64,000 bases of DNA, taken from assembly GCF_000003605.2 (NCBI RefSeq), contig NW_003133361.1, positions 50,774 through 114,773 on the forward strand, written 5' to 3'. The translations under genes were made by a program, and so were the position numbers. Positions 37,887-61,588 of this stretch are shown piece after piece. The notes beneath the pieces were generated by a model, which saw only the letters and a list, made by a program, of their open reading frames with translations, ran no database searches and was not told the origin of the DNA. Within the stretch, counting starts at the first letter, position 1. The number at the start of each line of letters is the position of its first letter. Source of the stretch: Saccoglossus kowalevskii (taxonomy: Eukaryota > Hemichordata > Enteropneusta > Harrimaniidae).

Positions 37887-40800
37887 ATGTTTGCTAAGTT
37901 GAAAAAGAAACTTGTTGAAGAAGATGGAGAAAATCCTTTGAATCGTAGCTTTAGCAGTCCCGGTCCCGGCCAGGCAACGAGAAGAGAACCACAAAGTAGA
38001 AATAGCGCAGGAAGAAGGGAATCAGTGGAAAGTGATAATGAATCAAGGACAAGTTCACCATTGGTAAGTTTATTCCATTCATAATAGCACTGGAGATATT
38101 GTCATTGAAGCCCAAACATTTTACATATTTACCAGTAACTAATTGGGTTCACCAATTTTCAGAAAATTAACTGCTCTTTAGTGTTCTGTCTGTGGTACAA
38201 TGCACCTGCTGTGCACATTGCTTTAAAGTGTACAGCTGTGGATTACACAAACTCTCAGTCGTCTTACAGCAGCATATCAATGATAATGCATTGTTTCAAC
38301 CCATTTTAAATCCAACCTTCATATACCCAAACCATCTTTGATATGCTCAATCCCAGACAGGAGGCATGACAGTCAACATGTGTTGTCATATCTAGAGTTA
38401 GCCAACTGTTTATTCAAATCCCAAGCTGTCAGCTAATTCACGTTTTAGTTGTCAACTTGTTGCCCCAAGAGCTCTGCTGTGATTTCTGGTGTTGTAAAAA
38501 TGATATACAAAATGAAATAAAATTGTTATTGCCATTGAACATGATATTACGGTAAGATAGTTTAAAAACACTAAATGATTATTGCTACAAAATTTTTTAC
38601 AGGCTGAATAAATTAACATACCGGTACATGTTGATTGCACTGACTTGGCATTTTCACTAAGGCATGAATTTGATTTATGGACATTTATAAAATATTTATA
38701 AAACATTTACCACGGAAGACCCTCACGCTTTATTATAACCCAAAGAAGACTCTTCCATTGGCTGTAGAAGCCATTTGGCAATGCCCATTACCCATAAGGC
38801 TTCACATCTTTTCTTCAGTCATTGATCGATTTACAGCTATGCATCCTGAATGTGTGGTGATTGGTCTAGGCATGGAGGTATAAACAGATTATAACTCCAT
38901 GGTCTAGGGGTTTTCAACCATTATTAATTTATTTGAATTTTATGGAACATTTATAAATATTTATATAAATCAAATTCGTGCATTTCTGAAATGCATTGTA
39001 GTAGACAGTCAAAAACCCTATTGCCTTTAGAGTATTAGTTTAAACATTACCATGAACTAAATTATTTTCATGTGTACCCAGCATGCAATTTTTAGATGAA
39101 AGCCCAGATGCTGTTCAATTGGTGTGTGCTAATCACAACACTTGTGACATTTCACTAACATTAAAAAAAAATAAAATAATATAAATCTGAACCAGCCGTG
39201 GGAACAGGTTGCAAGCTAGCTACAAGAACCAACATTTCATAGCTATTTCTCTTCACCTTATACCTTTCAAATTTGGTATCCTACTCTTAAATAATGGAAG
39301 CTGTTGATTGAGGCTGTCATTTTTTTTTAAACATTTGTTTGTTTAAACACTGTCTGAATCTGTTCATAATATTTGTGCGTCATATTTACGTCATATTCAA
39401 ATACTTTCCTTTGTTTACATTTGACACAGCAACTATGTAGTTTGTGGCTCAAACGGCCGTGCAGGAACATATACTATTTTATGACATTGTGAGCTGTTAT
39501 ACCTGATTACACTGTAACTGTTGTACTAGCAGTAACAAATGTATAATAAAGTTATCACACTAATTCCACAGTCTCCTCTCAGGCAGAATTGGATTGCATT
39601 GATCTTCTCTATGCAGTGGTTGATACGATCACTGTACTAGTTGCGTTCATACTTTGCTGTATTCTTGTAATAATCTCAAAATATTTGATGATTTACATTC
39701 TACATTGTTTTTAGGCATCAGCTTCAAAAGAAGAACTGTTATTAAGAATATCCAAAAAGAATGAGCGAATCAAAGATTTAGATAGCAAGGTCACCGAGTA
39801 TGGCACAATGTTAAAAGATGCAATTAAAATGAAGGACAAGTTAGAAATCGCTTTAGAAAAACAGCAGGATGGTAAGATATGTTCATGTGTTTATTCATTG
39901 GAAAAAATTGTCACAGAAGACATCAAACAAAAACATCAGGCAACAAACCTTTAAAATGTAATCAGTGCCATATTTCAGCAGCTATAACATATTACACAGA
40001 ATAGCAGCATTAACTCCACTTCTATTGTGTTACCAATAAAACAAGGACATTTTGTATACACAATATGTCAACCCTGTATGTTCAAAAGTCATGTGATCCT
40101 GTTGAATCAAACAGATTCACTATATCCAAGATACTGACAATTCTGGGTCTTTTTCACCCAGGATGTATTACAAACACTTGAAAACATTTTTATAATTCTT
40201 ACCAATTATAACAGATTTATGGATATTACACTAGTTATTACATTATTTTTAACTGTTTATGTATTGTTTTATCTTTGTTCAGTGGTTAGCTGTAACTTTT
40301 GTTACCATGAATGCTAGTAAACTTTAGTAGTGTATGTATATACCATTATTTATTGTCAAATAGCAACATTTCTTCAAGAAAGAAGGCATCCCGTCTGTCA
40401 TTTCACAGCTTTGTCGTCAGCTCAGTCAGATTTTACTGTTTCCTGAATATTCTGTTTTTTCTTCAGCCGGGTTAAAAAGAATACAAGAGATGAATGAAGA
40501 ATACCAGGTGCGGCGATCCAAAATGAGCGAGGATCATGCACTAGTTTTACAGAATAAAGAAGAGGAATATCAAACTCAATTACAAAGCATATTAAAAGAG
40601 AAATCAGTACTTGAAGACAAAGTTGAAAAATTGGAAGCAAATTTTTTTAAAAATAGGGAAGAAAGTGATGAATTGCAAGGATTTCAGACACAAGAAATGG
40701 CGAAAATTAAACATTTGGTGAGAAAACTTTTGTCTTTTGTCACCTATCTCAACATACATCATTTTTAAGCCCTGCTGGTATAGACGATTGTCCATCATCA

Positions 40801-43800
40801 TCGCCCTGTCTTCTTGAAAGCTGTTAACCCTATTGTTTTTTCTACTTGATACATATGTTCCTGGGTGGACCTCTATGAGATTTGATCATTTTGTTAATAA
40901 TATATACAAATCTCTATTTGTAATGAACATTTTCGTAATTCTTGAACACTTCTACTCCAATTAGTTTATACTTGGTATATGCATACATGTACTTTGGATA
41001 GACCTCTATTAGATTTGAATATTTCATAATTTTAGCAAATATTTTTGTCATTTTTGATCAAAAATTCTTGATACTGCTAGTTTGATTAAATTGATACTTG
41101 CTATGTGTCATTTTGTGACATAAGGGAACGTATCCTATAACTGGAGTTGATGATTCCAAATCTTGGGTCCTATTAAACTTGTCCTTATCAGTGATAAGAT
41201 CTCAACACAGAAGTTTCAAAGACTTAATAATAGAATGTAAACAAAGCCAAAATTATGATGTTTATGTAACTAGCGATATATACATGCACTTATTATCATA
41301 GAAAACTTATTATCACACTTATTATGATAGAAAAATGTATCAAAAAATGTTGAACCAAAATTTTGATGGAAAACTTATACAATTTAAAGAATCGTGCTCC
41401 CTCTTTTCATCATAAATTCACTAAAAATAGTGCCGTTGATAGCTCTTTCCTTGAGAAGATTGGGACAAAGATAGCCAAACTGACTCAAGTTTTGTCTATT
41501 GGCTCTAAAATTACTATCCATTTCCAGAAATATTGAAGAATATAAGAAAAAAGTGCAGGCAAATTTGGGGAGAAAACCTGGTCTTGAAAAGGTTAATGCA
41601 TGCAAGCAGCTCATTATATGGACTGCAGGTTGTCTTCTGTAAAGTACATGTACACTACACAGATAACAATTATAGATTAATCATGTAATCATTAATTGCT
41701 TTTTTTTTAATTAGTTTTTAAATTGTCAAGAGGAGCTTTCCAAGTGCAATGATGAATTGAAACTTAAAACACAACAATTAGAAGAAAATATCCGTCTTCG
41801 AGAAAGTCTTGAGACAAGCCTAGAGACAAATAAGAAGATATTAGAGAAAGTTACAAAAGAAAGGTATGTCAATTTCATAGGTAGAACTTACTTGAATAGT
41901 TATATACAAGGAGGGTTAGGGGTGCTGGTATACTCACTGGTTTCACCCAGTGAATGGAAAGTAAACTGTGATAAAGAAAAATACATTGTAATTTTTAAAA
42001 ATAGGTAGTATTTTATAATGTTTATGTGTCTATAATCTCAGCAGGAATGTTTTAAAACCTACATACCTCGTCAGCTGACTGTTATGCATATCACCCCCAT
42101 GCTTTCCTTCCTGGTGTTTTAGCACTACTGTAAAATGACTAATTTTCACTGGGTTTAAATTTCACTGATTTAGCATTTCAGGCATATTCAGTAGGTTTTA
42201 AATTCATGGTTTTATCATTTAGATAATGTGTTCTATACTAAATTTTACATATTCACTGGATTTTAATTTAGCGCATTTTCCAGTCAGCGAAATAAGCAAA
42301 ATTAAAACCCAGTGAATAATTAACCCTTTTACAGTATGCTTTATCTTGGTATATGTTAATTTGTATCAAGGGTTGATAAGGTAAGGTTAAGCAACTTAAC
42401 TATATACACTGTGATGAAAATCTCATGGGAAGCTTGCATGCATGTTGTGCATGTAAAAAAAAAGTATTTCTATCCAACAGCATTTTAGGACGAGTGAGCG
42501 CTTGGAAATTTTTGATTACAAAACAAAAGAAAACACATAATGAGCATGCTTTGTGAATAAGCAATGACACTAGCAACAACAGTCTGCAATAAACACAGTT
42601 TTTTCAAAACATATCCAATTTGCATTAGAATTTCTATAAATGTAGATTCATCTTACTATTTTACAATTCGTGCGAGGTTTTCATTGCATTCATATTAAAA
42701 ATTCCTATTCATATACATTACAGAGATAATTTAAAACAAGGACGAATGGACAATGCAGATCTTATAATAAAATTTGAACGAGAAAAGACAAATTATACAG
42801 AAAAAGTAGCAGAATTAAATAAAGAAATATCGGAGGTAGGTGTGTTACATGTATTAGTGAAATGATATTTAAATCTACCAGTCGACAATTACAACCAATC
42901 ATATTACAGCTGATCAATACGTAGTTGGCCAACAACTTCTGGTGAAATGTCAAAGTTAACCAACCGTTGATGTCCCTGCAGTATTCCTTCTAATATTTGT
43001 GTCGAATGGTGATTTGGAAAACTAAAAATAAATTATGAAAGAATACTGTAGAATTATTAAAAGTTGGGGATATTTTATTCTACAATTTTGCTGATGTCAT
43101 TATTTCACATCTATTATATTTCACAAAAAAAAACATAACAATGAAGCATCTCATGAATAAATTCCAGCTTTCAAGTAGTTAATAGTAATTAGCAAGGACC
43201 TAACAACCAAAACTAAAATTAGGCAATACAAATTGTCTTTTACAATTATGAATTAAAAAACTTCAATGGTTCTACAGTATTTGCTATATTAGAAGAGCAC
43301 GTACTTCCATTAAAGTAAGATTTGTGACTTTGATGTATGATCCTATTAGAGATATGTTCAGAAAACAAAAGTGATAACAGCAATGAAAAGTAACAGATCT
43401 CGTGCATAAGCCTCATTATTTTTATTCCAAAAATATGTTAATTGATATTAAAGTTCAAAAATTGAGGTATAACAGTTGAAGTTAATTGGTGTAGGCCAAA
43501 ATACTGTCAGATATTGTAGGATGTGGGGGGAGGGGGTGTCATGCATACTGCCTTCTGGGGTTCTGTAGCATTGTAGACATTGAGTTATTAGATATATGTG
43601 AATAAAATAATTGTAAGTTAGGTTTAGCTTTACTATCACTATCAATGACATTCAATATTGACTGGTGTATATGTGTCATGGTAGAAATTATACATCATAT
43701 CTAAATCAAATCCTACTGTGTTCAGCTGTTACCCTGTGTAGTAGTGATCATACCCAGATAGATATAATTATTCTTTATATATCCAGCTGTTTATTGTCAT

Positions 43801-46800
43801 ACATGTATTGTCAATAATCTATTAAAGTGGTGGTAATTATATATTCAATCTATAGTTTTTCCAATTCCAAATAAAATGTATCATGACTTAGTTTTATTAA
43901 CTGTTATTATTAACTACAAATGTTCACAATTTTATCAATTTGAGGCTGTTGGTTTGGACAAAATTGGCTGAACATCTAATATCTAAGGATTTTTTTCCTG
44001 AAAAAATTTGTGAAGATTTGTCTGGTACAAATAACAATATAAGCAATTTTCGGTTTGTTCTTGGGTTCATAATTTGGGTAAACTTGCGAGTACATTGAAA
44101 TCATATCAGTAAATTTGATCCAACATAATGTCTAGTGATAGCTTTTTTGTGGCACAGAAATATTGACAACAAATTTCTGCCTCATAAAAAGTCAGAATAA
44201 ATTCAGAATTGATCATTATAGTGAAAATTGCTTCCTATACATGTATGTATACAAGTTTTTTAAAGGTGCCTCTAATATTCTTTGTATCATCTAATGTTTA
44301 TGTGAAATATTAATAACAAATTAAGACTCTTGAACCCTCATAATTTTTCCATTTTTTTCAAAAATGTTAACTCATAGGAAATTGTGTCCATTTGGTTCGA
44401 AATAAATTATAAAGACATTATATTAAATTTACAAAATTTAACAATTTGTCAGTAAATGTTGTTTTGATATGTGTGAGAGTATCCTTAAAAATATGTTTCT
44501 GTCACTGATTATTATCTATGAATGCATGCAGAGTTTCATTTCATGTTTTTTTTATCGCAGCTACAATCTGATTTTAATTTTATCTGATGCTTACATGTGT
44601 CAGCAGCATCCACACAATGCACGACTATACAGGGCATTATTCTTATTAGGTTATTTATATTATTTCTGTTCATGGTTTTTACAAAATGGATATTGCGAAA
44701 ATGCTAGGGTTCTCTACAAAATATCTCATTTTCTGATTAGCACATGTCAGTGAAAAATATGTTCATCGTAGTTTTAGTTTCAGTTATTTTGTGCGATTTC
44801 TTTTTAAATGAGAAAGTAAAATCATGTTTCATAAAAAATCATAATGAAAGCACAAACTGTAAATAAAAATAAAAAGCCTGCATGCATTAATTTCTGAAAA
44901 CAAATTGACCAGAAAATTTTTTTTTTTCTTGGTCTAGTCTGTATTTTAATAACCAGTAGGTGACCTGGAGATATTATCAAAATATCAAAGTCTGAAGCCA
45001 CTTCTTTACCTGCATTCTGGTACTTCTATAGTGCATCTATCTTTGTGCATGAAGAATAAAGAGATTATTTCTCTTTTAACAATAATGTCAGTTTTATTAC
45101 TTTTCCAAAATAAACCTGCATAATTTATTGCATATTTTTTCAAAAAGTTTGATCAAAACCTGTAACTATGTCTATTTGGTCCAAAATAAAAAAAAAGATA
45201 TTGTAGAAAACTACATAATAATCTGCGAAAGGTATGAGAAATTTAATGAAAAGCTGTTTTTGATATGTATGAGGGTATCACTAAAAAAATGTCACTGATT
45301 ATTTATAATCCATGGATACCGAGAGTTTCATTTCATATTTTTTCTTGCAGATACAATCTCAATAATGTCAGACACTTCATTGGTTGCACATAAATTACTG
45401 TTATCCTTTATCTTTTATGTCATATTTGTTTTGATGCATGTCAATAATGTATTGCAATTGTTTTAATTTGTTACATGTTGTTTTGTGTTTCCTTTCCTTC
45501 ATTTTCCTGTATTCTAGAAATGCAGTAGTTTACACCACCTAGAAAGTAAACTAAATACCCTTCAAGATGACTATGATTCATTAAAGCATAGTAATGATGT
45601 ATTTAGACAGCAGGTAACTCTCATCACTTAAATCAACATTTATTTCAGCTGCTATTCTGCTGTAAAAATAACAGTTGTAATAAATGAATAAATTGCTGAG
45701 TTCCATGTTGCATGTGATATGCACACAAATTTATTAATGCTCTGTCATCCGGGAACAGTTATCTATCTATCTTCTGTGTATAACCCCAAAAGTTTGCCCG
45801 CTTTCACATCATAAACTTGACGAATTTGTTTAATATATTAAAATGTTGATCAAGACCTGCAGCTACTGTGAAATTAAGATAGAAGTCTACTCATAAATGT
45901 AAATACCCAGAATTTATTCATTTTGCAATAAACTGTACTCCTTGGTGTTTAAAGATATTTATTGAGAAATTTTTGAGAAAATTATTGTTTTATTTTAGTG
46001 GATAGTGACCAGTGTCAGTGCTTTTACCATTGATTCCTGTTGCAGAGATATTATGCCATATCTCAAATTGTAGGCTTGGAAAAAAATCATATATTGTAAA
46101 TAATTTGGAACTTTTTATTGTCCAGAATTATTTCAAACATCTGGGTTTTGAAAATTGTCAAAAAATGTTTTTTCTTTAACACTGTATTCTATAGGATTGT
46201 ATACTAAGGAATTTCTCAAACTAGGTCACTGTAATACACCAAATAAAATCTATTTCATTGTGCCATGAGACAATAAACTAATGAACATTACCATGCAATT
46301 TAAGACGAACTTTTTCAAAATTTATGAGTAGACTTCTACCTTAAATTCATTTGGTCAGAAATAACAAATTTAATAAAATACATAAAATGTACAATATGCT
46401 GCATCTACATGTTGGTGGGAAGCATTATGACATTCAAAGATTTAAAGCATCCGCATGAAATACTTAAGTCATTCAACTATGAACTTTTACTCACTCTTGT
46501 CATCTGGGTATTTTCCTGTCTATGCAAGCTACTGTCATCTGGCTTGTCATCTTACTTACCTATCCATTATATATGTTGAGAACACTGGACCACTATTTGT
46601 GTGCATGTTTCAGAATATGATTTCTTTATTTTGCCTGAATTTATTTTGATTTTATTTATTTCTCAACTTTGGTGCAAACATTCATTCATCTTCTTCATTT
46701 GATTTGATTTTAATTGATATTATTTTGTTTTCCGAAAAAAAAAATACATTAACTATGAACATCATATAATTTAAATAAGACCAGTACAATAAGTTAAATT

Positions 46801-49800
46801 TAGAATATATTAATTATAAAATAATCAATTGACAGTCAATTTAATATCTGTGTATTAACTAAAATAAATCACTATCTCTAGCAAAGAATAATTTTTTTAA
46901 AGTAAAAAAATCAATAAAATAGTGAAATTGGTTCAGTGTTTTCTAACAACTTTCAAACGAGTGAAAAATTAAATAATCCATAGACATATTCTTTTGTTTA
47001 TTTATTATAGCTAGATTATGTATGCTTGATAGTCAAATACTTTACCATAGTTATAGTTGAGAAAATACATATTAAGTTACATTTCAGAAAACATACATGT
47101 CAATTTGCCTGTATGTTTGATCTTTAATTTATGAATTGTTCTGCCTAGAAAAGACACTCCTTTGTCATTTGCACTACTACCTGTAATAGAGAAAATACAG
47201 TACTGTGGATTATTTAACATTCCATCTGTTTCAGTCAATGATATGGTAATATGGTCGTCACATCCTTATATGGTCAATTGCTTACATCCTTATTTGGTCA
47301 CCTCCCTACATCCTTATATGGTCACCTGAATACATTCTTATATGGTCATCTGCATAAATCTTTATATGGTCACATGTCTGCATCCTCATATCATCACATC
47401 CTTATATGGGCACTTGCTTACATCCTTGTATGGTCACTTGCTTACATCCTTATATGGTCACCAGAATATGTCCTTATATGGTCACCTGCATACATCCTTA
47501 TATGGTTACCAGAATACGTCCTTATATGGTCACCTGCATACATCCTTATATGGTCACCTGCATACATCCTTATATGGTCACCTGCTTACATCCTTATATG
47601 GTCACCTGCATACATCCTTATATGGTCACTTGCTTACATCCTTATATGGTCACCAGAATATGTCCTTATATGGTCACCTACATACATCCTTATATGGTCA
47701 CCTGCATACATCCTTATATGGTCACCTGCATACATCCTTATATGGTCACCTGCATACATCCTTATATGGTCACCTGCATACATCCTTATATGGTCTCCTG
47801 CATACATCCTTATATGGTCTCCTGCATACATCCTTGTATGGTCACCTGCATACATCCTTATATGGTCACCTGCATACATCCTTATATGGTCACCTGCATA
47901 CATCCTTATATGGTCACCTGCATACATCCTTATATGGTCACCTGCATACATCCTTATATGGTCACCTGCATACATCTTTATATGGTCACCTGTATACATC
48001 CTTATATGGTCACCTGCATACATCCCTATATGGTCTCCTGCATACATCCTTATATGGTCTCCTGCATACATCCTTGTATGGTCACCTGCATACATCCTTA
48101 TATGGTCACCTGCATACATCCTTATATGGTCACCTGCATACATCCTTATATGGTCACCTGCATACATCCTTATATGGTCACCTGCATACATCTTTATATG
48201 GTCACCTGCATACATCCTTATATGGTCACCTGCATACATCCTTATATGGTCACCTGCATACATCCTTATATGGTCACCTGCATACATCTTTATATGGTCA
48301 CCTGCATACATCCTTATATGGTCACCTGCATACATCTTTATATGGAGCTCTTAACCTGCTATAAATAGACTTTAATTCTTGGGCATATCATATTTGAAGA
48401 AACATTGTCTTTTTAGGTCTAGTTTTTGACATATGCATAACTTAATTTCCATTTCATTGACTTTATATGTTTTATTATCACTAATATCATACCTTTTACT
48501 TCTTGCTTGCATTTTGGAATTGTAGAAAAAGAAGGTAGAATTTTATATAAATTTGATGTCAGCCAAAATGTCAAAATTATGTATGTATACCTATACTGTA
48601 TGTGATTTTGACATTATGGCTTTATACTATACTATGTATTAACCCTTATCTGGTAAATATATCTAGCAGATTAAGGGTTAAACCTGTATTGTTTTAATTA
48701 TATTGCTAGTGTATACTAAATACCTGGTCTTGTACACATGACTTAGTCAGGGAATATCTATCATACTTTACCTGTATATTATCTGAACTTCTGCTAACGC
48801 CTTGATTACTATAGGGCCATTAAAGTACACAACCATATGTGTAAAATGAATAAGTTAGCATCAAGAGCATAATTGTGTTTGACAAATTAATGATGCAAAC
48901 TATATACCAGTGCAACGATTCTCACAAATAATTTTTTTTTTTATTTAACCTTCTGATTTATGCAAGAATTGATCAGAAGTAAAATCGTTTGAATTATTTT
49001 TGTACATGATGTGTATATGGCAGAAATATCCATGCATAGACTTTAGACCAGGAGATTCATTTCTCCTCACAGCAACATTTCTACTATGTACGTCTGGGAC
49101 TGACTTAAAATTATATTTTGGGGTTTGGACATTTCTGTGATTGTCATTGTGTTTAGGCTTACAAGAATAATAAACAATACTAGCTCAATATTGTGAGTAG
49201 AGAATCTTTCCCTTAGTCATGTGTATAAGCCTGTATAAGACGATTGTACAACAATTTTAATAAAGTTGCATTAAATATACAAGCACTTAGTATAAAACAT
49301 TTTTTTTAGGCCACAAAAATTGATCTGTTTCTGGTTTGTGTGAGTGTCAATATATGATAGGACAGTTTATACACATATGTTTTGGTGTATTTGAATAAAA
49401 CACTAAAAACGAATAAAACAACTCACAATTTTTTCAAGAAACAGGTCTGTTTTTTGGCCTTAGTTTGATGTTACTAATGTATTATGTATATAACTAATCT
49501 GTAAAGGTCCATATATGAAAAATTCCCTTATATGGACTGGTGTAATTTATAAATGCTTGATACTAAAACTCACATATTCCATTTTTCCAATCTTATTTCT
49601 GTTTATTATGTAACTTGCTTAGAAAGATGTTGTTTATTTCCTAATATATGTACTATTATGTGACTTTCATTGACTGTAGATGTCTAGTTTGGTGGAAGAA
49701 AAAGAAAGCACAATTACACATCTAGAGAAGAGAATAGTTATATTAGAACAGAGACTTCAAGATAATGATCTCAATAGCGATGACCAACTAAAAGCTGCCA

Positions 49801-52800
49801 AAACTGAAGTAAGTCATTTTTTTTGTATATGTTTATAGCACATTTGAACACGTCTTTAATACGTCTTTATACAAGCATGTCTTTTTAGCGAATTTAGCGA
49901 ACTGATTCAAGATGTCGCTGATGACTTTATTATAAATTCAAAATGGCCAAGACTTGGGGATTTGTATACAGTAATCCGAAACATAAAAATCTGGGGCGCT
50001 TCCTAATTACACAGACAAGTATTGTGAAAACAGGAAATCAACAATGACAAGAGAGATTCGATAAAGCAGCATTTCGTTATTGCGTCATTTACCACAATTT
50101 GCATGTCGCTTTTTTAACACGTTTTACAGTATTTGTATCAACTATCACAATGTATACTTGCATAATGTTTTCATATTGTTTGATCAACTACTATAGCAAA
50201 TAGGAAATTATGTCTTTCTGGTCCAAAAATAACAAAAGTATGCAAAATGTTGGACCATAATTTTGGCGCAAAAAATTCTTGTAAAGATTGCATTGTACAG
50301 GTTTTTATGGATGACTAAAACCATTGTTTCTGCATCAAGATGTATAATAAAAAGTCATGCTTCAATACTATTATTTCATCTCCACTCTAGCTACATAAAC
50401 CTTGTTGTATGTTAGTGTATATTATTGCGTTTTGCAGAGAGATTTATTGGAGGAAAGGCTTGAGGAGTCTAGACAGCATGTGAATGATGTAAAAACCACT
50501 TGGAGTTCCAAAATAACCAGTCTTGAACAACAGGTAAAGAAACTTACGGTATACTAGTAATATGAGAACTACATGCAGTTTATACCTGGTATATGTACTA
50601 ATATATGTATCTGAAATATAAAAAGATGCGATGTAAAAATGCAAAGATCTGATTAGTTTTGGGTGGAAATATTTGCATAGTAAAAGAATTTTATTAAAAT
50701 CAAAAATAATTTCTGTAGATTGATTTTTACATCTTTGTATATTAAAAAAAAAATTACTTGATGTTTATTTTTAACACATTGCCTGCAGACCCCCTTTTCC
50801 CTTTGATTTTGGAATGTCTGTGGACACTTTCATCAGATAATGACCACTTTATAGACTTTATGTTGGGCCTCTTCTAGGGACCCCTAAAATATCTCATTAT
50901 GCTATGATACTGCGCTAGTGTGCAGTGTTTAGATTTGATCCACACACACCAGTATATCTCGCAATATGTGTACGGTACATAGTTTTAACTTGTAGAATTC
51001 ATTTGGAATCAAGCTGATGTTAGAAATTCAAATAATTGATATTTCACACCAACACATCGAAAAATATCTAGTGGATTATTGTTAACTCTTCTTTAAATAC
51101 ATTTGTAGTAGTTACCGGTACATAATTTTTTTGAAAACTGACATCGAGGGCACTGTTACCAAATAATATCACATCATTTTTGAACAGCATGGTGAGTGTT
51201 TGCTGCCACACACACATCTATCAGAATAATACAATATTTTATCCACAATTGCAGATATCTCATCTAAACAGCAAGATGGCTGAAGACAATGAAGAGCTGG
51301 CATTGACACAACAACAGACACAGACAATGAAACAGAATTTTGAGAAACAAGTAGAAGAACTTAAGGTTTCCCTCAAAGCAGCTGAAGATAGGGCACTTAA
51401 AAATCTTGAACTAGCTAATGAAGCAGAGTCTAAGTTTGAGGTTCAGGTCAGTGAACTTTAATGCAATGCACATACATGTTTGCCCAGTAGTGTAGAAATA
51501 AACAATTGAAGAAAAATACTTGTAATCCCACTTTGCAAATCTGTGAGGTATCACCCCTGAACAATATATGCCCCATAAAAGGTTTGAATTGTGCATGGTC
51601 AGTTACATTGTAGGTATATTTGTCTAAGGGTTAAAAACCTCCAATACTGGTACTCTCAATATGAAAGTCAGGAAAGGGTATCTACTTTTAATATTTCATA
51701 TTTTTTGAAAGCAAAAACAAATGAATGCACCTTGTCTAGTCTGATGAGATCATATGTAATACATGTATTACCAAGATGGATTATGAATCACTTTGTGCCA
51801 TGCAGCTTAGCAGTGAGAGATAGAAGATAAAATAATTATTTTCCTTCACTTTCTAGCTAGAGGTAATATTGAGGTAAATTTATATGGGTGTGCTGTTTTC
51901 TATGTAGAATTTTTCTTTTTTTAAAAAAAAATATATTCTGTACATTTTTTTTTCTCAAACCTCGCTCCCAGTTTTCTAATGGTCAATGTCAAATGACGGT
52001 AATTTACTTTTTATGTATTATTTCATCATATAACAATTTTATGTTTTATTAGAAAGTTCAAACGGAAGTTGAACTACATAGATCAAGACAACAGGTTCTG
52101 GATGCTAAACAACTGACAACAGAAATGAGACAACATTTACATGATAAAATTAGTGCCTTGGAAAGTCAACTTATTGCTTTAGAAACAACCAAAGAATTTG
52201 ACAAAGCAAACTATCAGCAAAGAATAGTAAGTATAAAAGAGTTTGACTATTATTAGTCTTTTCAATTGTGATATGCTATAATCTCAATATATTGAGCATT
52301 TTACAAATTAAAAAGTTTTAATTTTGACATTATATTCACATGCATTGAACATATTCTCAGTAGATGCAAAACTTTCAGGCTAGTGTAATTATCCTAAATA
52401 TACTATACAGCAAAATATTATATGCTCGCATAAAAATATTCTAACTTTCTCTATTATGTTCTTTATCAGTACCAGTTAGAAAATTTGCAAACTGAATATC
52501 TTGAAAAAGAAATTGAACATGAGAAACAAATTGGTACAATAGAAGAAGACTACCAGGGTTTAAAGGTCAGATTCTTGTCTTATTTCTTTTTGCTTTAATA
52601 ATAGATGAAAGCATGTGTGCTTTCTGGAGAATGTTCTGTATTACTGTAGAATACTTTATTTTAGCTGGAATTAATTTTCGCTGAAAATACATTTTTTGGT
52701 GTTTTGTATGGAATTTATTTTCACTGATTTTTGACAAGTTGAATGTGAAATATAGGAAAAAAGGTATATTCGCTGGATCATTCCTACAGCGACAATAGCG

Positions 52801-55800
52801 AAATTAAATTCCAAGCGAAAATAAAGTATTTTACAGTATATCAAAGTTAGCTTGCTAGATCAGTGTTAATTTGTTGTGCATAAAGTTGAAAGTCTTTTCA
52901 ATTTTGAGTAACATCACCAAAAATCAAATTTGAAATTTACAACATTATACTGATAAAAATGTGATGTACTGCACCATCTATCAACAGTTATTATTGTCTT
53001 CATAACAATAAATCTAGTCTTGCAGTGCTGTTCTAATTCTGCTTAGACTGGACACAAAACATATCTAACCTTTGTAGGTAGTACATATTCAAAATTCACT
53101 TGGACACAGTGATAACACGAATACAATAATCATCCTATAAATTCAATAGGCACTTTATGGCAATACATAAAAAAAAATCAACCAACAAATCTCAGACTAA
53201 TCTTAATGAAAAATGCTTCACATTAAATATTGATTTTGATATAGCTCATCTTTAAACTCATGATAATCATGATGTGGTTCTGTGATACTTTGAGATACTG
53301 AAAATCCAGTCACAACCAAATTTGCAGAACTACTTGGTAATGTTCGGCTACTGAGCAGAAACATGTGTTGCCAATACCATGCCAATACAAACTGTTGAAT
53401 CTGTCTATATTACGTATATTAGTTTAAATACATAACAATAATCTGGTAAATATACAACTTCAATATAGTATTTTCAATAGAGACTAATAAAAGCCTGATA
53501 TGTTTGTTTGGGGGGAATTTTTAGGACTGTGATTTGTTAAATTTAAATGCTTACCATTTTGATCATTTTGTACATGTATATATGGTTTATTATTGCATCT
53601 TAGGAAAGACTGCGGCAAAAAGAAAGGGAGTGTATATCAGTAAACAGATCTTTAGAAGAAATGACAAGAAAGGCTGAGTTATTAGCAAAGCAGGTAAGAC
53701 ATCAATTGTGTATCGCTACAATATTTACTGGTATGTTTCTATCATACCAATATGACAGAATTGCTATTGTGTTGAAAAACTTATTTGTGTTTTATAATGG
53801 GTTACATGTATGTCAGAGGTACATTACTTGGGGTTTGCAACTACGGTGACATGATACCAAGATCCCGTTTCAATCTTGCTCTCGCATAAGCGTATCAACT
53901 CAGAAAAATGCGAATGCGCATGCCCAAGGTAACTAGGATACTGGGATGTCCAGGTGGATCAAAATAGCTGATCACGATATGACGGATTACGATAACTATA
54001 TTTTCTGTACATTTTCGATGTATTACATTCTTTCACTATGATAGTGGTGAGACATGTTTTATTGTAAATCTTGAACATTGATATATGTCATGTCAGAAAG
54101 TCGTAGCACCAGTCTCGCTATCTACGAAATGAGACTTGATAGGGATCTTGACATGATGTCACCATACAGTACTATGCACGTTGCAAACCCCAAGTAATGT
54201 ACATCTGGTTATATATATAAAGACCACCTGCCATATGTGAACACCCTGTTAGCAATATTTTTGCTGATTTGTCTAATGTTTAAAAGCTAAAATAATAATT
54301 AGCAAGAATACTTACAACGATACCTTAGGCAAGGACAATCTGATACAAACACAGTTTGCAGTCTCATACCACACACTCATAAATCTTTGACTTCTTACGT
54401 CATGTCACACTTCATTTCAAGTTCTGCTTCAAAATGGCCAACTTGTTTCAGGGATTATTTCATGCCAATGACTTGTTAAAAAAATAATGATTATAAAATT
54501 AAATTAATATTGATGACAATGGCTACCTCATGTTGGAGGGGTTGCTATGAATATTTACTGCTGATAACTTCTCACTTTCAATAACTTATGTTTTACTTAC
54601 CACTTCTCTCTTTCAATAACTTATGTTTTACTTACCACTTCTCTCTTTCAATAACTTATGTTTTACTTACCACTTCTCTCTTTCAATAACTTATGTTTTA
54701 GGTCGATGAAGAAACTCCAATGATGCAGGAACAAGTTAACTCATTACATGAACATTTGTTAAAAAAAGAAGAGAATCTTAAAGAAGTTATTCATGGTAAA
54801 GTATTATTTCATTGTTCAAGAATTTGTTCGTCCAATTCTGGATTGAAATCTATGTAATTAAAGAATTATTATTAACTGTAGTTCATCCTGTCAGTTTTAT
54901 TATCATTTTGTTATTATGTGCTATTGGGGTTTACTGAATGAATTCATCAATTTTTAATTAATTAACGTACCATCATTTTGATACAATAATATTTTGCATA
55001 GTATTTAAAATGTTTATTTATACATACACTTTGGGTTATGGTTCAAAAACAAAAAGCTCTACATGGAAATAGTAGTTGAAGCTGCTTTTATTTGCAACCT
55101 TCGCAATGTAATCCGCGTACACTGGTTGACTGTAATGTTGAGTACCGGGCGGCGTGCGCCGGTTGACACCTAGGCTAGATAGTGTTGACACCTATTTGCT
55201 ACCATTATTTTTATATATGAATCACCCCTAAAGTAAAAGCCTCAACAACATCATGCCAATCTCAAACAATCATGTACACATCATTTCCTAACCATGGTAA
55301 ATATTTGATTTAACTGTGATACACACATTTGAACGTACGTTATTTTATTATAAGCAAACGAATCCAGCTGTTGAGCAAACTGGCAAATGACTCCACCCCT
55401 CGCATACACCCGTTTTCCTGGCCTTTGTATTACCCCTCGCATAGGGCTTTTTTGCTACTCGCAAATGATATATTTTATCTCTCCCATATGCCGTTTTTAC
55501 CACTCGCATATGGCATATTTTGCTACTTGCGACTCGCAACTTGGTACTCGCATATGGCACTTTTTCTAGGTCGTACATACCTCCTTAAGTTCTAGTCATC
55601 ACATTTCAATGATACTTACTTAATCATTTCTATGGATTTTTCAAGGAATTAATCATCTGATGAAATTTGGTACTTAAAATGTGCCTCGGGACATTGCACA
55701 GACTACCGTACTTCCCTGAGTATAAGCCCAGGGGCCTGAACATGTAAAATTGGGAAAATTAGGGGGTGGGCTTATACTCAAGGACCACCTAAGAAAAGAT

Positions 55801-58800
55801 ATTGGGGGGGGGGGGGTTAAAATTATAACCATCTTCCCAAGCATGACAAATTATCCAAATTGCATTTTTCTTTTTGATTTCCACAACACTTTTTACAATG
55901 AAGAAACAAACATGTTCATAAAAATACACACATTTTATTACAATACGATTTACATACCATCTGAATTTACAGTGCAAAAATGGGTAAGGTCTTTGGAAAA
56001 ACAGTCGAAGGCAAGATCTTTATCATTATCTTCATTGTGGAATGTTTTCAATCGTACGCAAACTCTTGATACAAAGCAATTTACGCCATGGTGTTTTGCA
56101 TCATAACTTGACCTGAACAACTTCCTTTGACCTAACAGGTCACGTCTTTCGTTAACCAATCAAACGTCTGTGTCATACAGACGAAGTTTCCCGATTATTG
56201 ACAAAGTAATTTTTTCAACGCAATGCGGAAGTGAATTAACGCGATATTAAAATGTGATCTGATTTCGACAAAAAAACAGTTATTTTTTCCTTAAAGCTGT
56301 TGATTCGCAATTTTCTAAAGGTCACATTTTTGGCGTTTCTAAAACTACTACTCAAAAGAAATATGAATTACATCAGTATTGCAACATCAGGGTTCATCCT
56401 GAGTAAATAACAGAATAGAAAATGTGAGAACCATGTTCCGTACATTCGCCGGCCTGAAATTAATGCAAGTTTTCTTGTAAAAGCAGGAACCAAACTACCG
56501 TACCACTCACGATTATTATGCAATGAAATACACTTTTTACATGCAATTTTTATAAATGCCGTCGATCCCCATACAAACAAAATGGGCCTATACTCGGGGA
56601 TGCCCTCAAATGTCTAAAAACAGAGGGGTGGGCTTATACTCTGGAGGGGTTTATGCTCGGGGTAGTCACAAAGCTTATTGTTTGAAAGGCTAATCTTAAA
56701 TTTTGATTTAATTCTAAATATGTCTCCAGTACTTTCAGTACACAGAAGTTCTTTCTAAGCTTTCTTTGATTTAGAAATACACAGGCAGATTTCAACCAAC
56801 TTGGTATGATGGGTTGCTGGGTTGCTGGTGCATGTTGTTTCATGATGTCTTTTTTTTTGTTTTTGATACGATTTTTTGTGTTTTTTTTGCACAAGGTATT
56901 TTAATTGTTGTTATTTTGTTTATTACAGAGAAGGAAAAGATCCAAAAACAGAATAAAGATCTGTTAAAAGAAGTAAGAGAACTTTTAGAAAGATGTCAGA
57001 TAGTCCAGAGTGAAGCACATAAATTACAAACAAGCAAAAATGATACTTTATTAATGTATCAAACAACACTGAATGAAAAACAGGAGGAGGTTAAGCAATG
57101 TCACTTGAGGGTCAGTTTGACGAGACCATCCAACCCCTTATGTCACTTGTGTATGGGGTACAGTGTCACTGACTTGTAAGCTTCCTCCCCATTGGCTAGC
57201 CATACCTAAAGAGTGAAAATTTAGCCAATCAAGGATTATGTTCCTGGCATCTGCCATTTGAATAATTTCTGCTATTGTTTGCATCACTGTACCACTTAAC
57301 AAAGCTGATATATAGAAATCACGTTTATCAGTATAATTCCTGTAAAATCAGCAAAAACACTCAGAATGCTATATACTTATCCCAAAAAATGTTGCTGAAA
57401 TATTTTTAAAATTTTTATATATTTTTCAATAATTTATTCTTTTATTTTGAACCAGATTGACATAATTTCCATTGCCTACAGATCTTAATCAAAATTGTTG
57501 AAAAAGAATGAGAAAACAAGTTTTTTATGTGTGGCAATTGGTTAAAATTGATGTTAATCTTCCTAGCCCTGATATTTTTGGACAGTGATATTAACAATCT
57601 GTTTATACTCTGGTGGTGGTGATGGTGGTGGTACACTGTTATCTCATTCTATAGTGATATGTGGGGTGTTTCTTTGTGTTTGTGTATGTTGTCAACATTT
57701 GATGTCATGCATGTGTTCTATAAAATCATTTATTTTTACTGGTGTTATTTCACTATTTTGATCACATCCGCTGGGTTTTAAATTTAAAAATAGCGAGTTC
57801 TATATTGTTCACATGGATTTAATTATCAGAGAAAATGCCGAATGAATATTTAATGCGTTAATTCACCAGTTTTCTAATCATGTTTTATTGAATGTTATTT
57901 AGATCATTTATATCATAGAAATAACCCAGTGATGTCATTTCTTTCTTTCAAATATGGTCTCACTACAATATTTAAAATTCTTATTATTACTGTAAACCAT
58001 CTAATTTTTTCTGCTAAAAATATTCATTTCATTGGGGAGTGAGGCGTCCTAGATTTCTACTCAAACAATCACAGAATCAATATGGTGGACAATATAGTGT
58101 GTGAGGAACTAAATATCATCCAATAGTATCACCCTAATCATAATCAGTCATGTATCTGATATAAAACATTTCCATTTTTGGTCTTCAGAGGGCCCACTTC
58201 ATGACTTGACTACTGTCGCCAAATCCACCCGGTGATGTATTTATTACCCTCAGGTGATCAAAGCATGAATGAAAGCATTGCATGAGGCAATGAAAATTTA
58301 AGGGTTTACAGCAACTTATTACATATGAACATATTTTCAACAAGTCACAGAAGTATTAGAGCAGCAACTTGGCTGAACAGTAAAATTGCGTCTACTGACT
58401 CAAGTTCAAATCTATATTGTCTCAGAACAGATAGCGTTTTCACAATGCAACTTCATTTAATATATTGTTTGAAAATCTCATGTCTCGTATAATTCATACA
58501 TTTATTTCAAATACTGCACTGTTTATGAGTCAACATACTGCCGTGATACTGAGACTTCAACACTTATATGGCAGTGACTGCTAGTAACTGCTAGTTTGGT
58601 GTTTTTATAGATAAATGAGTTGAAAGAGAGACATAAAAACATAGAAACATTACAACGAAGTACAAGTATACATGACGGTGATCTTGATGATTCTGAGGTA
58701 AGGTTGATAAAGATTAAGATGAAATATTATTATAATAGTTACTGTTGTATGCCCATACACTAATGTAGTTGAGTTATTTCTTGCGAGGATATTCCTGAAA

Positions 58801-61588
58801 TGCTAGCTGTATTGATTTGTGCCATTGTGTGCTGTCTGATTGCCACTTTACAGTTAGATATCATTATTACATTCAATATGTCAAAATACTTCAGCAGCAA
58901 TATTAATGTTTGGAGTCTGTACATGCACGCATTTATCAATTAGGGTTTGGCTATTCCATTGTAATATGTACAGAGAGTATCCACACAGGAACTGTGTGTG
59001 TGTACTTCTTATTAGGTAATAAAAAATTACAATTTTTAAAATAAGACCTGAGGTGGCACAACTTTGTCTTTCTCTTTTTAGATTAATCAGTTGAAGAAGT
59101 TAGTCAGTGAACTTGAAGATAACTTGGCTGAGAAGAATAAAACTATTAAAATGCAACAGCAGAGGTTATCTGACTTGAAAAAGACTCTGCAAAGAGAACT
59201 GGTGAGTGTATAATTGCCATCTTCGATTTAATCACATTCATATCTTCCACTTTTGATTTATAGTCGGGGTCATATCATAGTTCTCCATCTTTGATTTGAT
59301 CATGACAATATCAATGTCTTCCATCTTTGATTTGATCATGACGATATCAATGTTTTCCATCTTTGATTTGATGATAACTATATCAATGTCTTCAATCCTT
59401 GATTTGATCATGACGATATCAATGTCTTCCATCTTTGATTTGATCATGACGATATCAATGTCTTCCATCTTTGATTTGATTTTGACCATATCAATGTCTT
59501 CTATCTTTGATTGATTGTGACCATATCAATGTCTTCCATCTTTGATTTGATTGTGACCATATCAGTGTCTTCCATCTTTGATTTGATTGTGACCATATCA
59601 ATGTCTTCCATCTTTGATTTGATGATAACTATATCAATGTCTTCAATCCTTGATTTGATCATGGCCATATCAGTGTCTTCCTTCTTTGATTTGATCATGG
59701 CCATATCACTGTATTACATTTTTTATTTGATCTTCGCAATAATGGTAGTTTGGATTTGGTTCAAAAGAATTGACATTCAGGACAGGGTGCAGATAATTTG
59801 ACTATGTTTTGCTATTTGTTTTCACTGTGTAGAAAATACAAAGTAGTGGTACTGATTTAGATGACATCAATAATCGAGACAGGGAAAGAGAGATGATACC
59901 TCGGTCATCAACAGTACCATCTGGCATGAATCAAACACATATATCTCCTCTTCCACCGGGGCATGGAGCTACTATAGAACCGCTCAAAGCTCATGAAATT
60001 AGAGACACTAACTTCCAGTATCTTAGACATGTTATATTCAAATACATGTGCAGCTCAGACCCAGAGGTATGTTCAATGTATGTCATGTCACTCACCTACT
60101 AGAATTGATTTCTACATTTTATCCACAATTTAAATAAGTTCCTATATGCTTGTTAATTACAATTGTAAAAAGGAAAGAAATTTTTTTATAGCAGTGAACA
60201 TTTCACTGTGTATGCATGCAGAAGATTACTATGATAATTACAGGGATTTTCTAACTTATCAATTTACAATATAGTATGAAGATGTTTATTGTATTATCTA
60301 TTCAACGACACAAAAAGTATAATTATACATTTGTCTTTGAACACAGTTCAATTGACTATTCTGTAAAAAAAAAAAATTTACATTCATTCAAAACATTTGT
60401 TTCTGAAATTTTCTTCTTTTAACGTAAACCACATCACCAACATGTAGGCATTTCAGTTGGACAGAATAAGCGCTATGATTGAAATAGAACGTGTCACTAT
60501 ACACAAAAGGATATATAATAATAAAATTATCACAGAAATATCACAAAGTATACACTGTAGCTATATATCAGTAGTATGACTATTATACTATAATATGGTA
60601 TATAGTTTCTGAACACTCTTGATAAAAATACTGACTGGTCTAATATTGTGAACGTCATTCAATTCCATGTTTTTGTGAACTTTACAAAAAGATATTAACG
60701 AGGGGGGGGGTCATGATATCAAGAGTCGGAGTCAGTATTTCATAGTTACCACTTTTTTTTCATTTCACTCATAGGCTATGCAGTTAATTAAAGCTGTAGC
60801 TGTGTTGCTACAATTTTCACGTCAAGAAGAAAGACTAGTGAAAGAGACAATAGAATGGAAGGTATGGAATTCTGTGTATTTTATTACACTACTTTATTAA
60901 GCCTCTGAACATTTTAATGTGATTTCATGGCTTGATCTTTGCATCCAAGAAGAAAGCATTTCCGTAGACAAAAGTGCACCCAAAGTTCAGCTCTGTTAAA
61001 TTCTCACTGTTAAATTTCTGCTGCTTTAGAGATGATAATTTGAATGTTTACTACTAAAACATTTTTGAAAATGTCCCTTGTCAAATTTACGCTATTGGGC
61101 CAGACCACTTTTTCCCTTGCCACGCCACAAAAAAGTGTTTTTTTCATGAGTAAAATCAGGGATGGCGAGCAGATTTTTTTTTGTTAGTAAAAGTAATAGA
61201 AAAAGTGAATATTTTTTTTTACAAAGTGTATAAGATTTATGTTAAATGATATGAGAGATTAAACCAGACAGGAAAATACAGAATACTAAAAAAAATCTTT
61301 GATGTCTGTATCAATTAGTACTCTCAGAAAACAACAAAATACATTTGGAATCTGCTAAGCCTTGTATCTTCTGGACCTGGCCATAACATACTAAACCAAA
61401 TGTTGCAAAATAATGTATTCAGTTAATTAAGATGCCTACTATATTAAGACATTAATTAACAGTTCATATGTCACACCACCCTGACTATTGAATTTTTACA
61501 ATAAAAGTTTTTCTATATTCTTTCACAGATGTCCTGGTTTGGAAGTAAACCCACCCCAGCTAAACCTCTCAAAATGCAGTATAGATGA
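37887..61588 (+). CDS. GOLGA1: Golgin-97 (GOLGA1), trans-Golgi GRIP-domain tether, complete, 19 coding exons, 860 residues
   Basis: Peripheral trans-Golgi coiled-coil tether recruited by the GTPase Arl1 and capturing endosome-derived carriers (family knowledge). Exons, all with matching phase: 37887-38063, 39715-39871, 40467-40717, 41715-41863, 42724-42835, 45518-45613, 49680-49808, 50438-50533, 51255-51446, 52053-52226, 52470-52565, 53604-53693, 54702-54795, 56929-57110, 58611-58697, 59082-59201, 59833-60066, 60775-60861, 61529-61588. The start MFAKLKKKLVEEDGE matches human golgin-97 MFAKLKKKIAEE, the N-terminal vesicle-capture motif that binds TBC1D23. Coiled coil follows to about residue 775; DELQGFQTQEMAKIKHL matches human DELEGFQQQELSKIKHM. 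The GRIP domain is at about 789-847 and the tail MSWFGSKPTPAK matches human MSWFGSKPAPK. Human golgin-97 is 767 residues; the excess here lies in the coiled coil. Confidence 0.95.
40800..41110. repeat. Two diverged copies of an about 120-bp repeat in golgin-97 intron 3
   Basis: GGTGGACCTCTATGAGATTT (about 40863) recurs as GATAGACCTCTATTAGATTT (about 40997). Each is preceded by ATACATATGTTCC or ATACATGTAC and followed by a TTTGATCATTTTGTT-like or TTTGAATATTTC-like word. Not coding. Confidence 0.6.
42126..42336. mobile_element. Small inverted-repeat element, family B, copy 2
   Basis: Starts TACTGTAAAATGACTAATTT, ends TTAACCCTTTTACAGTA. Same length and content as the family B copy at 10098, inserted in opposite orientation. 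It lies in the golgin-97 intron after exon 4. Confidence 0.85.
42836..45517 (+). other. Golgin-97 intron 5 (2.7 kb)
   Basis: Contains the family C element (43044-43279) and two diverged copies of a dispersed repeat (about 44340-44575 and 45105-45370). The copies share GATATGTGTGAG/GATATGTATGAG, TGTCACTGATTAT and GAGTTTCATTTCAT. No exon is supported. Confidence 0.55.
43044..43279. mobile_element. Small inverted-repeat element, family C (single copy)
   Basis: Starts TACTGTAGAATTATTAAAAG and ends TTCAATGGTTCTACAGTA. The first about 20 bases and the reverse complement of the last 20 agree imperfectly. The interior is unlike families A and B. About 236 bp, non-coding. Confidence 0.55.
45614..49679 (+). 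other. Golgin-97 intron 6 (4.1 kb), longest intron in the window
   Basis: Carries the 24-bp CArG-box minisatellite (47249-48345). Elsewhere it is AT-rich with a fragment of the dispersed repeat near 45800-46300. No exon is supported. Confidence 0.6.
47249..48345. repeat. 1.1-kb minisatellite, 24-bp unit, carrying about 35 perfect CArG boxes
   Basis: The unit is CCTTATATGG followed by TCACCTGCATACAT, about 45 copies, most nearly identical between 47400 and 48345 and more diverged at the left. By eye about 35 units keep CCTTATATGG (or CCTTATTTGG), a perfect CC[A/T]6GG site. A pair of TCTCCTGCAT variant units at about 47793 and 47817 recurs at about 48033 and 48057, 240 bp (ten units) away, showing block duplication. 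Because 24 is a multiple of 3, several frames stay open for over 200 codons; these are not genes. Confidence 0.97.
52642..52838. mobile_element. Small inverted-repeat element, family A, copy 3
   Basis: Begins TACTGTAGAATACTTTATTT and ends GCGAAAATAAAGTATTTTAC then AGTA: near-perfect inverted ends of about 30 bp. 197 bp, non-coding, in the golgin-97 intron after exon 11. Confidence 0.82.
53819..54202. mobile_element. 384-bp element with long terminal inverted repeats
   Basis: Starts GTACATTACTTGGGGTTTGC and ends with its exact reverse complement, GCAAACCCCAAGTAATGTAC. Inverted similarity continues inward (GGTGACATGAT and CAAGATCCC on the left; GGGATCTTG and ATGATGTCACC on the right). Non-coding. 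Family not recognised. In the golgin-97 intron after exon 12. Confidence 0.8.
54581..54700. repeat. 35-bp tandem repeat ending inside a splice acceptor
   Basis: Three full copies starting at 54581, 54616 and 54651, and a partial fourth at 54686-54700 that runs into the acceptor of exon 54702. Each unit carries ATAACTTATGTTTTA and a pyrimidine tract CTTCTCTCTTTCA. Only the last copy reads TTTTAG; earlier copies read TTTTAC. Confidence 0.93.
55420..55560. repeat. Short irregular CTCGCATA(TGG) repeats
   Basis: CTCGCATA or CTCGCATATGG recurs about five times at uneven spacing. Confidence 0.6.
55704..56664. mobile_element. About 960-bp non-autonomous DNA transposon-like element
   Basis: The left end GACTACCGTACTTCCCTGAG (55701) is followed by TATAAGCCC. 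The right end, read in reverse complement, begins GACTACCCCGAG and holds GAGTATAAGCCC. Between lie G-rich runs (55804-55816) and no recognisable transposase. The GGGCTTATACTC words at both ends face each other. In the golgin-97 intron after exon 13. Confidence 0.6.
57111..58610 (+). other. Golgin-97 intron 14 (1.5 kb)
   Basis: Contains a dispersed-repeat piece with ATAATTTCCATTGCCTACAG (57470-57489) and a TGGTGGTGATGGTGGTGG microsatellite (57612-57632). No exon is supported. Confidence 0.5.
59225..59735. repeat. 36-bp minisatellite, about 13 copies
   Basis: The unit contains CCATCTTTGATTTGATCATG then A(C)ATATCAATGTCTT. It starts about 25 bases after the donor of exon 59082-59201 and fills most of that intron. 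The period is a multiple of 3, so open frames on both strands (MSSIFDLIMTIS-like) are artefacts. Confidence 0.95.
59833..61588 (+). CDS. GOLGA1: GRIP-domain exons of golgin-97
   Basis: Exons 59833-60066, 60775-60861 and 61529-61588. EIRDTNFQYLRHVIFKYMCS then QLIKAVAVLLQFSRQEERLV and ETIEWKMSWFGSK align almost without gaps with the human GRIP domain (EINFEYLKHVVLKFMSC, LIKAVSVLLNFSQEEENML). The Tyr of FQYL (about residue 797) corresponds to human Tyr697, which is needed for Arl1 binding and Golgi targeting. The domain is split by two introns in phase 0. The stop TGA is at 61586-61588. Confidence 0.95.

What the first reader, a model, noticed from the sequence alone, without database searches (positions are those of the whole stretch)
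47249..48345. Intronic array of about 35 perfect CArG (SRF/MEF2-class) boxes in golgin-97
The 24-bp unit contains CCTTATATGG, an exact CC[A/T]6GG site, kept in about 35 of about 45 units; the rest of the unit is equally regular. Helically near-in-phase spacing (24 bp, about 2.3 turns) of so many sites could act as an enhancer or as a sink for SRF-type MADS factors, or the sequence may simply be a minisatellite whose unit happens to contain the site. Block duplication of ten units shows recent growth by unequal exchange.
Basis: partly seen in the sequence, partly recalled or inferred. Interest (0 to 1): 0.72.

Follow-up and report, generated by a model that had tools for sequence, protein, structure and literature searches.

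The report
Minisatellite with chance SRF-type sites
A 1.1-kb stretch of about 46 head-to-tail 24-base repeats sits in an intron of a golgin-97 gene, probably of an invertebrate, and carries 35 perfect muscle-type (CArG) protein-binding sites, most likely because one repeat that held the site was copied many times, although similar arrays with other spacers occur elsewhere in the same genome.

Summary
The array is real: 45.6 copies of a 24-bp unit at 47260-48345, with 35 exact CC[A/T]6GG sites, on the sense strand of a golgin-97 intron. It behaves as a single-locus minisatellite. All 40 reported matches to the unit with up to 3 mismatches in the 572-Mb genome lie in this array. It is diverged at the 5' end, homogeneous further 3', and holds a ten-unit block duplication. 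Spacing is not helically in phase (about 103 degrees off) and the unit holds no MEF2 site. The CArG decamer varies less than the linker (10 v 38 cells), but not robustly once truncated units are kept or base composition is matched (p 0.04-0.37). Unexpected: exact CCTTATATGG or CCTAATATGG triplets form minisatellites with other linkers and periods on at least 13 further contigs, while three of four control decamers give none. Best reading: an ordinary neutral minisatellite whose founder unit held a CArG box. SRF binding is plausible and untested. A genome-wide class of CArG-core minisatellites is the novel reading not excluded.

The parts
47260..48345 (+). Minisatellite, 24-bp unit ACATCCTTATATGGTCACCTGCAT, 45.6 copies
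   Evidence: TRF; unit list
47245..47399 (+). Diverged 5' edge: partial first unit, five variant 24-mers and one 16-bp unit (47384-47399) with a broken core
47784..48263 (+). Ten-unit block duplication (47784-48023 and 48024-48263), marked by the variant trio T13,T13,G5
47264..48321 (+). Series of 35 exact CC[A/T]6GG sites, from the first to the last
42724..42835 (+). Likely golgin-97 exon upstream of the array intron (donor GT at 42836; start approximate); assignment inferred from an open coiled-coil frame with AG and GT borders
49680..49808 (+). Golgin-97 exon downstream of the array intron (acceptor AG ends at 49679; end read off a GTAAGT donor)
   Evidence: tblastn E 0.002; borders
37887..61558 (+). 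Golgin-97 gene, from the MFAKLKKK start to the last matched piece; introns included
   Evidence: tblastn with recalled human GOLGA1; GRIP PF01465 E 1.1e-14 on a joined peptide

Best explanation
It is a neutral, single-locus intronic minisatellite. A short stretch that by chance held CCTTATATGG was duplicated head to tail. The array then grew by slippage or unequal exchange, most recently in its 3' two thirds, copying the CArG box along with the rest. Shown: the array, its polarity, its block duplication, and that no other copy of the unit was reported in the genome. Inferred: the growth mechanism and the lack of selection. The sites would probably be bound by SRF-type MADS proteins if the chromatin is open (inferred from the site sequence), but nothing here shows an effect on golgin-97.
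For: All 40 reported matches to the unit with up to 3 mismatches lie in this array (the tool's counts are lower bounds). Variation falls from 2.25 to 0.43 changes per unit from 5' to 3' (first 16 against last 28 of 44 full units, p 0.0004), with a block duplication, as in growing minisatellites. By my filter the window holds six other minisatellites of 3 or more copies, none with a CArG in the unit. Of 12 variant cores, 11 lose the CArG; 24 of 30 possible single changes would. The coolness of the core fades when changes are matched by base (5 of 23, P 0.10) or the truncated unit is added (8 of 26, P 0.25). The best-kept decamer by rotation starts two bases further on (37 of 44 exact against 34). 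No special RNA fold of the unit on either strand (z 0.07 and -0.32).
Against: Over 44 full units the core has 10 non-consensus cells in 10 positions and the linker 38 in 14 (permutation p 0.01-0.02; in the 16 older 5' units alone 4 v 32, p 0.005-0.016). A neutral simulation gives a fixed decamer this cold in 0.8% of arrays, and some decamer this cold in 9.6% (uniform mutation, truncated unit left out). Arrays with CArG cores and other linkers lie on at least 13 further contigs. Pooled over 15 arrays the core is slower than base-matched linker in 10 of 15 (Wilcoxon p 0.048), A/T to A/T changes are over-represented in the W6 (p 0.044), and periods are coherent with 10.5 bp (R 0.63, p 0.003).
Confidence: 0.7

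Rival explanations
1. A homotypic SRF site cluster with a regulatory role: many CArG boxes on one minisatellite bind SRF/MRTF and act as an intronic enhancer, a repressed enhancer or a sink, and selection keeps the core.
For: 35 perfect sites. Synthetic tandem repeats of random DNA that held CArG boxes responded strongly to drugs that activate SRF-MRTF (PMC5024686, passages). An intronic human VNTR with 45 PU.1 sites is a repressed enhancer of IFNB1 (PMC13373173, passages). Other CArG-core arrays in this genome and weak pooled signs of core constraint.
Against: 24-bp spacing is out of helical phase. Core constraint in this array is not robust; 11 of 12 core variants lose the CArG. The pooled tests are ascertained by exact core triplets and units are not independent. 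No chromatin, binding or expression data.
Confidence: 0.12
2. The core is a mutational hot word: CCT(A/T)ATATGG promotes the birth or growth of minisatellites (by recombination, slippage or an unknown nuclease), as a shared core sequence does in some human minisatellites (recalled), with no transcriptional role.
For: Arrays with this core and other linkers and periods (20-42 bp) on 14 contigs in all, the window's included. The decamers GGTTATATCC and CCTATATTGG, the latter with the same dinucleotide make-up as CCTTATATGG, give no array. With the arrays masked, the flanks of the loci share only two short matches (32 and 22 bases).
Against: Only four control decamers were answered, and one of them, GGTATATTCC, gave 25 matches on an unknown number of contigs. 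Chance expectation is about 2 arrays per such decamer if the sampled sequence, mostly this minisatellite-rich window, is typical; on that yardstick the excess (8 and 5 other contigs) is P 0.001-0.002 and 0.05-0.07.
Confidence: 0.13
3. Some of the arrays descend from one dispersed repeat whose linker diverged.
For: The window array and the C253 array (22-bp unit) align over 537 columns at 71% and share CCTTATATGGTCA; C1728 and C3774 share a 21-bp period.
Against: Periodic arrays that share a ten-base core would align partly anyway (inference). Flanks share only two short matches, though several flanks are short, one is absent and some loci hold masked sequence. No unit-like sequence outside this array was reported at 3 mismatches.
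Confidence: 0.04
4. A coding exon: most of the array is open in three forward frames.
For: Stop-to-stop ORFs of 370, 344 and 336 codons. Pfam DUF4816 matches the YILIWSPA frame at E 1.1e-31.
Against: The 24-base unit is a multiple of 3 and has no stop; 15% of random 24-mers are open in all three forward frames. Two of 23 distinct changes do make stops (TGA at 47327, TAA at 47355), against 3.1 expected when changes are re-placed, so stops are not avoided. The acceptor-like AG at 47233-47234 leads to stops in all three frames by 47329 (read). The opposite strand matches an unrelated bacterial family, DUF2345, even better (E 9.3e-35).
Confidence: 0.01

Closest known systems
Minisatellites / VNTRs in introns
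   Same: 24-bp unit, about 46 copies, block duplication, one homogeneous and one diverged end
   Different: Unit holds a perfect CArG box in 35 of 46 copies
MORC3-repressed tandem-repeat enhancer of IFNB1 (PMC13373173, abstract and passages seen)
   Same: Intronic VNTR with dozens of copies of one transcription-factor motif (45 PU.1 sites there, 35 CArG here); unit sizes of 20-192 bp in that class
   Different: Function shown there by reporter and loss of MORC3; here only sequence. The term SRF was not found in the main text of that paper
STAR-PROM synthetic tandem-repeat promoters with CArG boxes (PMC5024686, passages seen)
   Same: Random DNA that held CArG by chance, repeated in tandem
   Different: Synthetic, 6-8 copies of 84 bp driving a reporter; there SRF-MRTF response was measured
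GGAA microsatellites bound by EWS-FLI1 (PMC2654724, abstract seen)
   Same: Tandem repeats as binding arrays; activation depends on repeat number
   Different: 4-bp unit, oncogenic fusion protein
Helitron-spread CArG-like sites of PHERES1 (PMC6914339, passages seen)
   Same: MADS sites multiplied by repeats
   Different: Dispersed transposons in plants, not a tandem array

Membership tests
Minisatellite | Head-to-tail units of about 10-100 bp with variant copies | tested here: met
Minisatellite | Length polymorphism between individuals | not testable with these tools
   One assembly only; no reads or second haplotype at hand
SRF CArG box | CC[A/T]6GG | tested here: met
   35 exact
SRF CArG box | Bound by SRF in vivo | not testable with these tools
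   No chromatin data
MEF2 site | YTA[A/T]4TAR | tested here: not met
   None in the unit
Homotypic tandem-repeat enhancer (MORC3-MRE kind) | VNTR with dense copies of one motif | tested here: met
   (tandem repeat and motif; length variation not testable)
Homotypic tandem-repeat enhancer (MORC3-MRE kind) | Motif cluster kept at the orthologous place while unit sequence changes | not testable with these tools
   No relatives of this genome are held (stated)
Homotypic tandem-repeat enhancer (MORC3-MRE kind) | Core slower than linker among units (my proxy, not a published criterion) | tested here: inconclusive
Homotypic tandem-repeat enhancer (MORC3-MRE kind) | Enhancer activity | not testable with these tools
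   Needs a reporter or deletion
Pfam DUF4816 | Match above the curated cut-off that is more than periodicity | tested here: inconclusive
   Whole ORF 108.9 bits (cut-off 29.4), six repeats 23.9 bits, ten shuffled periodic peptides at best E 0.0036, opposite strand matches DUF2345 better

The most novel reading that the evidence does not exclude
This genome carries a class of CArG-core minisatellites: independent arrays with different linkers and periods of 20-42 bp, 9 of the 15 aligned here at 21, 31 or 42 bp and so close to multiples of the DNA helical repeat, that have gathered SRF-optimal CArG boxes under selection as SRF/MRTF-responsive or repressed enhancers. The golgin-97 array is one member.
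Probability: 0.1. Interest if true: 0.75.

Novelty: new member of a known kind. Interest (0 to 1): 0.33.

Why it matters
If neutral, it shows how a minisatellite can hand a gene dozens of perfect binding sites without selection, which warns against reading such arrays as enhancers. If the recurrence of CArG cores in arrays with different linkers holds against a larger control panel, it would be a counterpart, outside mammals, of the PU.1 tandem-repeat enhancer and a natural test of how repeated sites evolve.

Tried and rejected
Rejected: helical phasing of this array (24/10.5 = 2.29 turns); MEF2; coding exon (a first impression that no variant makes a stop was wrong, two of 23 do); structured RNA (no Rfam match at gathering thresholds in the window; fold z about 0). 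Carriage by a transposon: of 16 inverted-repeat pairs in 3.5 kb, one (18 nt, 89%, 47233-47250 and 48445-48462) closely brackets the array, which I take as chance; array flanks have only short matches elsewhere in the window, apart from a self-hairpin the longest is 56 bases at 73%. Viral or phage origin: no exact 34-base match in viral contigs, none to 381 bases of the array in phages. A recalled list of 24 motif cores found sites in four of eleven array units of the window, this array included; too crude to be a null.

Paper searches: CArG with minisatellite gave 47 papers, 20 listed, none about a CArG minisatellite by its title or abstract start; SRF/CArG/tandem repeat/array/decoy 64 papers, 20 listed and CArG box/VNTR 3 listed, none on a natural CArG array by title; DUF4816 or PF16086 0 papers. 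Searches on satellite sequestering, mollusc repeats, minisatellite polarity, short tandem repeats, homotypic repeats and GGAA were seen as listings, apart from the papers named in Closest known systems.

Not completed: control decamers CTCTATATGG and CTTGATACTG and a search with the array flanks, because the genome search was mostly unreachable; five of its calls were answered (55, 74, 83, 94, 102).

Full report
Observation. The window holds a 24-bp tandem repeat at 47260-48345, 45.6 copies, 90% matches. It has 35 exact CC[A/T]6GG sites, 34 of them CCTTATATGG and one CCTTATTTGG. Outside the array the window has 4 CArG boxes where 4.2 are expected; one of these is again CCTTATATGG, alone at 49526 in the same intron. 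A random 24-mer of this window, closed to a ring, holds a CArG in about 0.16% of cases, so one array with a CArG unit is mildly unusual. The 35-fold repetition adds little to that, since it is one founder copied.

Setting. A recalled human GOLGA1 query finds a mostly ordered series of exon pieces on the + strand from 37887 (MFAKLKKK) to 61558; some coiled-coil pieces match out of order, and a separate coiled-coil frame at 20483-22249 also matches, which I take as coiled-coil similarity. The last exon pieces, joined, match the GRIP domain at E 1.1e-14. The array lies between a likely exon with donor at 42836 and an exon with acceptor ending at 49679, so it is intronic. The assembly has 572,110,611 bases in 4830 contigs. 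The species is not known; an invertebrate is inferred.

Anatomy. The first 16 of 44 full units differ from the consensus at 2.25 positions on average and the last 28 at 0.43 (p 0.0004). One unit is 16 bp long with a broken core. A trio of variant units recurs ten units later. Within the genome the unit was reported only here: 40 matches with up to 3 mismatches, all in this array, as are the 17 exact 34-base matches. The tool says its counts are lower bounds for repeats.

Is the CArG core kept by selection? Over 44 full units there are 10 non-consensus cells in the 10 core positions and 38 in the 14 linker positions; by position permutation p is 0.01-0.02, yet 5 of 24 rotations, the CArG one included, are as cold. 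In the 16 older units it is 4 v 32 (p 0.005-0.016), in the 28 younger ones 6 v 6. With the truncated unit and the last partial unit included, p is 0.04-0.07, and with the leading partial unit 0.10-0.37. When each distinct change is re-placed on a site of the same base, 5 of 23 core changes has P 0.10, and 8 of 26 with the truncated unit has P 0.25. A neutral simulation with uniform mutation gives a fixed decamer this cold in 0.8% of arrays and some decamer in 9.6% (truncated unit left out). The core changes do not spare the site: 11 of 12 variant cores lose the CArG. I read this as weak and not robust.

Phasing and partners. 24 bp is 2.29 turns, about 103 degrees out of phase; the unit has no MEF2 site but does hold CACCTG, an E-box, in 29 of 45 units.

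Other arrays. Three exact copies of CCTTATATGG with gaps of 4-34 bases occur in 81 matches on 9 contigs, the window's included. The pattern read backwards gives 0 and 25 matches on the two strands, contigs not shown. CCTAATATGG gives 42 matches on 5 more contigs, its reverse none. GGTTATATCC and its reverse CCTATATTGG, itself a CArG by the loose consensus, give none; that second zero also speaks against 'any CArG will do', though by recalled binding preferences it is a poorer SRF site. The other arrays have units of 20, 21, 22, 25, 27, 31, 33 and 42 bp with other linkers. One 42-bp unit alternates CCTAATATGG with CCTTATATGG, another CCTAATATGG with CCAAATAAGG, both 21 bp apart. With the arrays masked, the flanks of the 14 loci share two short matches only (32 bases between the window locus and C255, 22 bases between C2602 and C3419); several flanks are short, that of C3470 is absent, and some loci hold masked sequence. 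The window array and the C253 array align at 71% over 537 columns, so some arrays may be related.

How surprising is this? Counting all decamers with four G or C in the window without the array plus six 10-kb stretches (94,928 readable bases) gives about 2 arrays per decamer genome-wide, but all 35 counts came from the window and none from the six stretches, part of which read N. On that yardstick 8 other contigs for CCTTATATGG has P 0.001-0.002 and 5 for CCTAATATGG 0.05-0.07; with one array per decamer, 1e-5 and 0.004. Decamers surely differ in how easily they found arrays, so a larger control panel is needed; I could not run it.

Pooled tests on 15 arrays: substitutions per cell 0.088 in core and 0.112 in linker; core below base-matched linker in 10 of 15 arrays (Wilcoxon p 0.048); mean mid-rank of the decamer among rotations 0.36 (0.5 expected, standard error 0.075); A/T to A/T changes 70 of 173 in the W6 and 129 of 410 at A/T linker sites (p 0.044); periods coherent with 10.5 bp, R 0.63, p 0.003, mean phase 9 degrees. 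Against these: the arrays were found by exact core triplets, which favours quiet cores; units are related by descent; two of the 15 are an inverted pair on one contig; two 42-bp units were entered as 21; and no periods of control arrays are at hand. Five arrays run the other way (C1728a, C3470, C3774, C4506, C1550). The first ten arrays alone gave p 0.098 for the A/T test.

Known kinds. Random DNA made into tandem repeats gave promoters that respond to SRF-MRTF activation when it held a CArG (PMC5024686, passages). An intronic VNTR with 45 PU.1 sites is a repressed enhancer, and arrays at the same place in other mammals keep the motif while unit sequence varies (PMC13373173, passages). So a chance array could act, and recurring arrays with one motif have a precedent. 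Nothing here shows that this array acts.

Verdict. An intronic minisatellite, most likely neutral, whose unit happens to hold a CArG box; a new member of a known kind. The part worth following is the recurrence of CCT(A/T)ATATGG as the shared core of arrays with different linkers in the same genome.

Noticed in passing
G000 contigs C253, C255, C1608, C1728, C3332, C3470, C3774, C4506 (L040-L074) and C437, C1550, C2602, C3419, C3776 (L075-L079): Minisatellites with CCTTATATGG or CCTAATATGG cores and other linkers and periods.
   Followed up: partly
window 48561-48621: Near-perfect 61-nt palindrome (AGCCAAAATGTCAAAAT arms), RNA fold of 48540-48640 z -5.5, about 215 bp after the array; miniature transposon or small-RNA hairpin possible.
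   Followed up: no
window 48639-48681: 43-bp palindrome TTAACCCTTA...TAAGGGTTAA, DNA fold of 48636-48686 z -5.5; TTAA ends resemble a tiny piggyBac-type element (recalled).
   Followed up: no
window 49506-49536: A lone CCTTATATGG in the same intron forms a hairpin with GTCCATATA (RNA fold z -1.7).
   Followed up: partly
window 47242-48352 +: The YILIWSPA frame of the array matches Pfam DUF4816 (E 1.1e-31); six repeats alone 23.9 bits, and the match is lost when the second Ile, the Trp or the Pro is masked. The family may rest on translated minisatellites.
   Followed up: partly
window 47637-48350 -: The GDHIRMYA frame matches bacterial DUF2345 (E 9.3e-35), taken as a false match by periodicity.
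   Followed up: partly
window 6699-7922, 59284-59732, 16581-16899, 54567-54700, 62594-62879: Other minisatellites; six by my filter, against two in six 10-kb stretches elsewhere in the genome, part of which read N.
   Followed up: partly
window 34139-35275 -: FKBP-like/TPR protein gene in one open frame (FKBP_N_2 and TPR matches).
   Followed up: partly
window 20483-22249 +: Long coiled-coil frame of 589 codons, only a weak GAS-family match below its cut-off.
   Followed up: no
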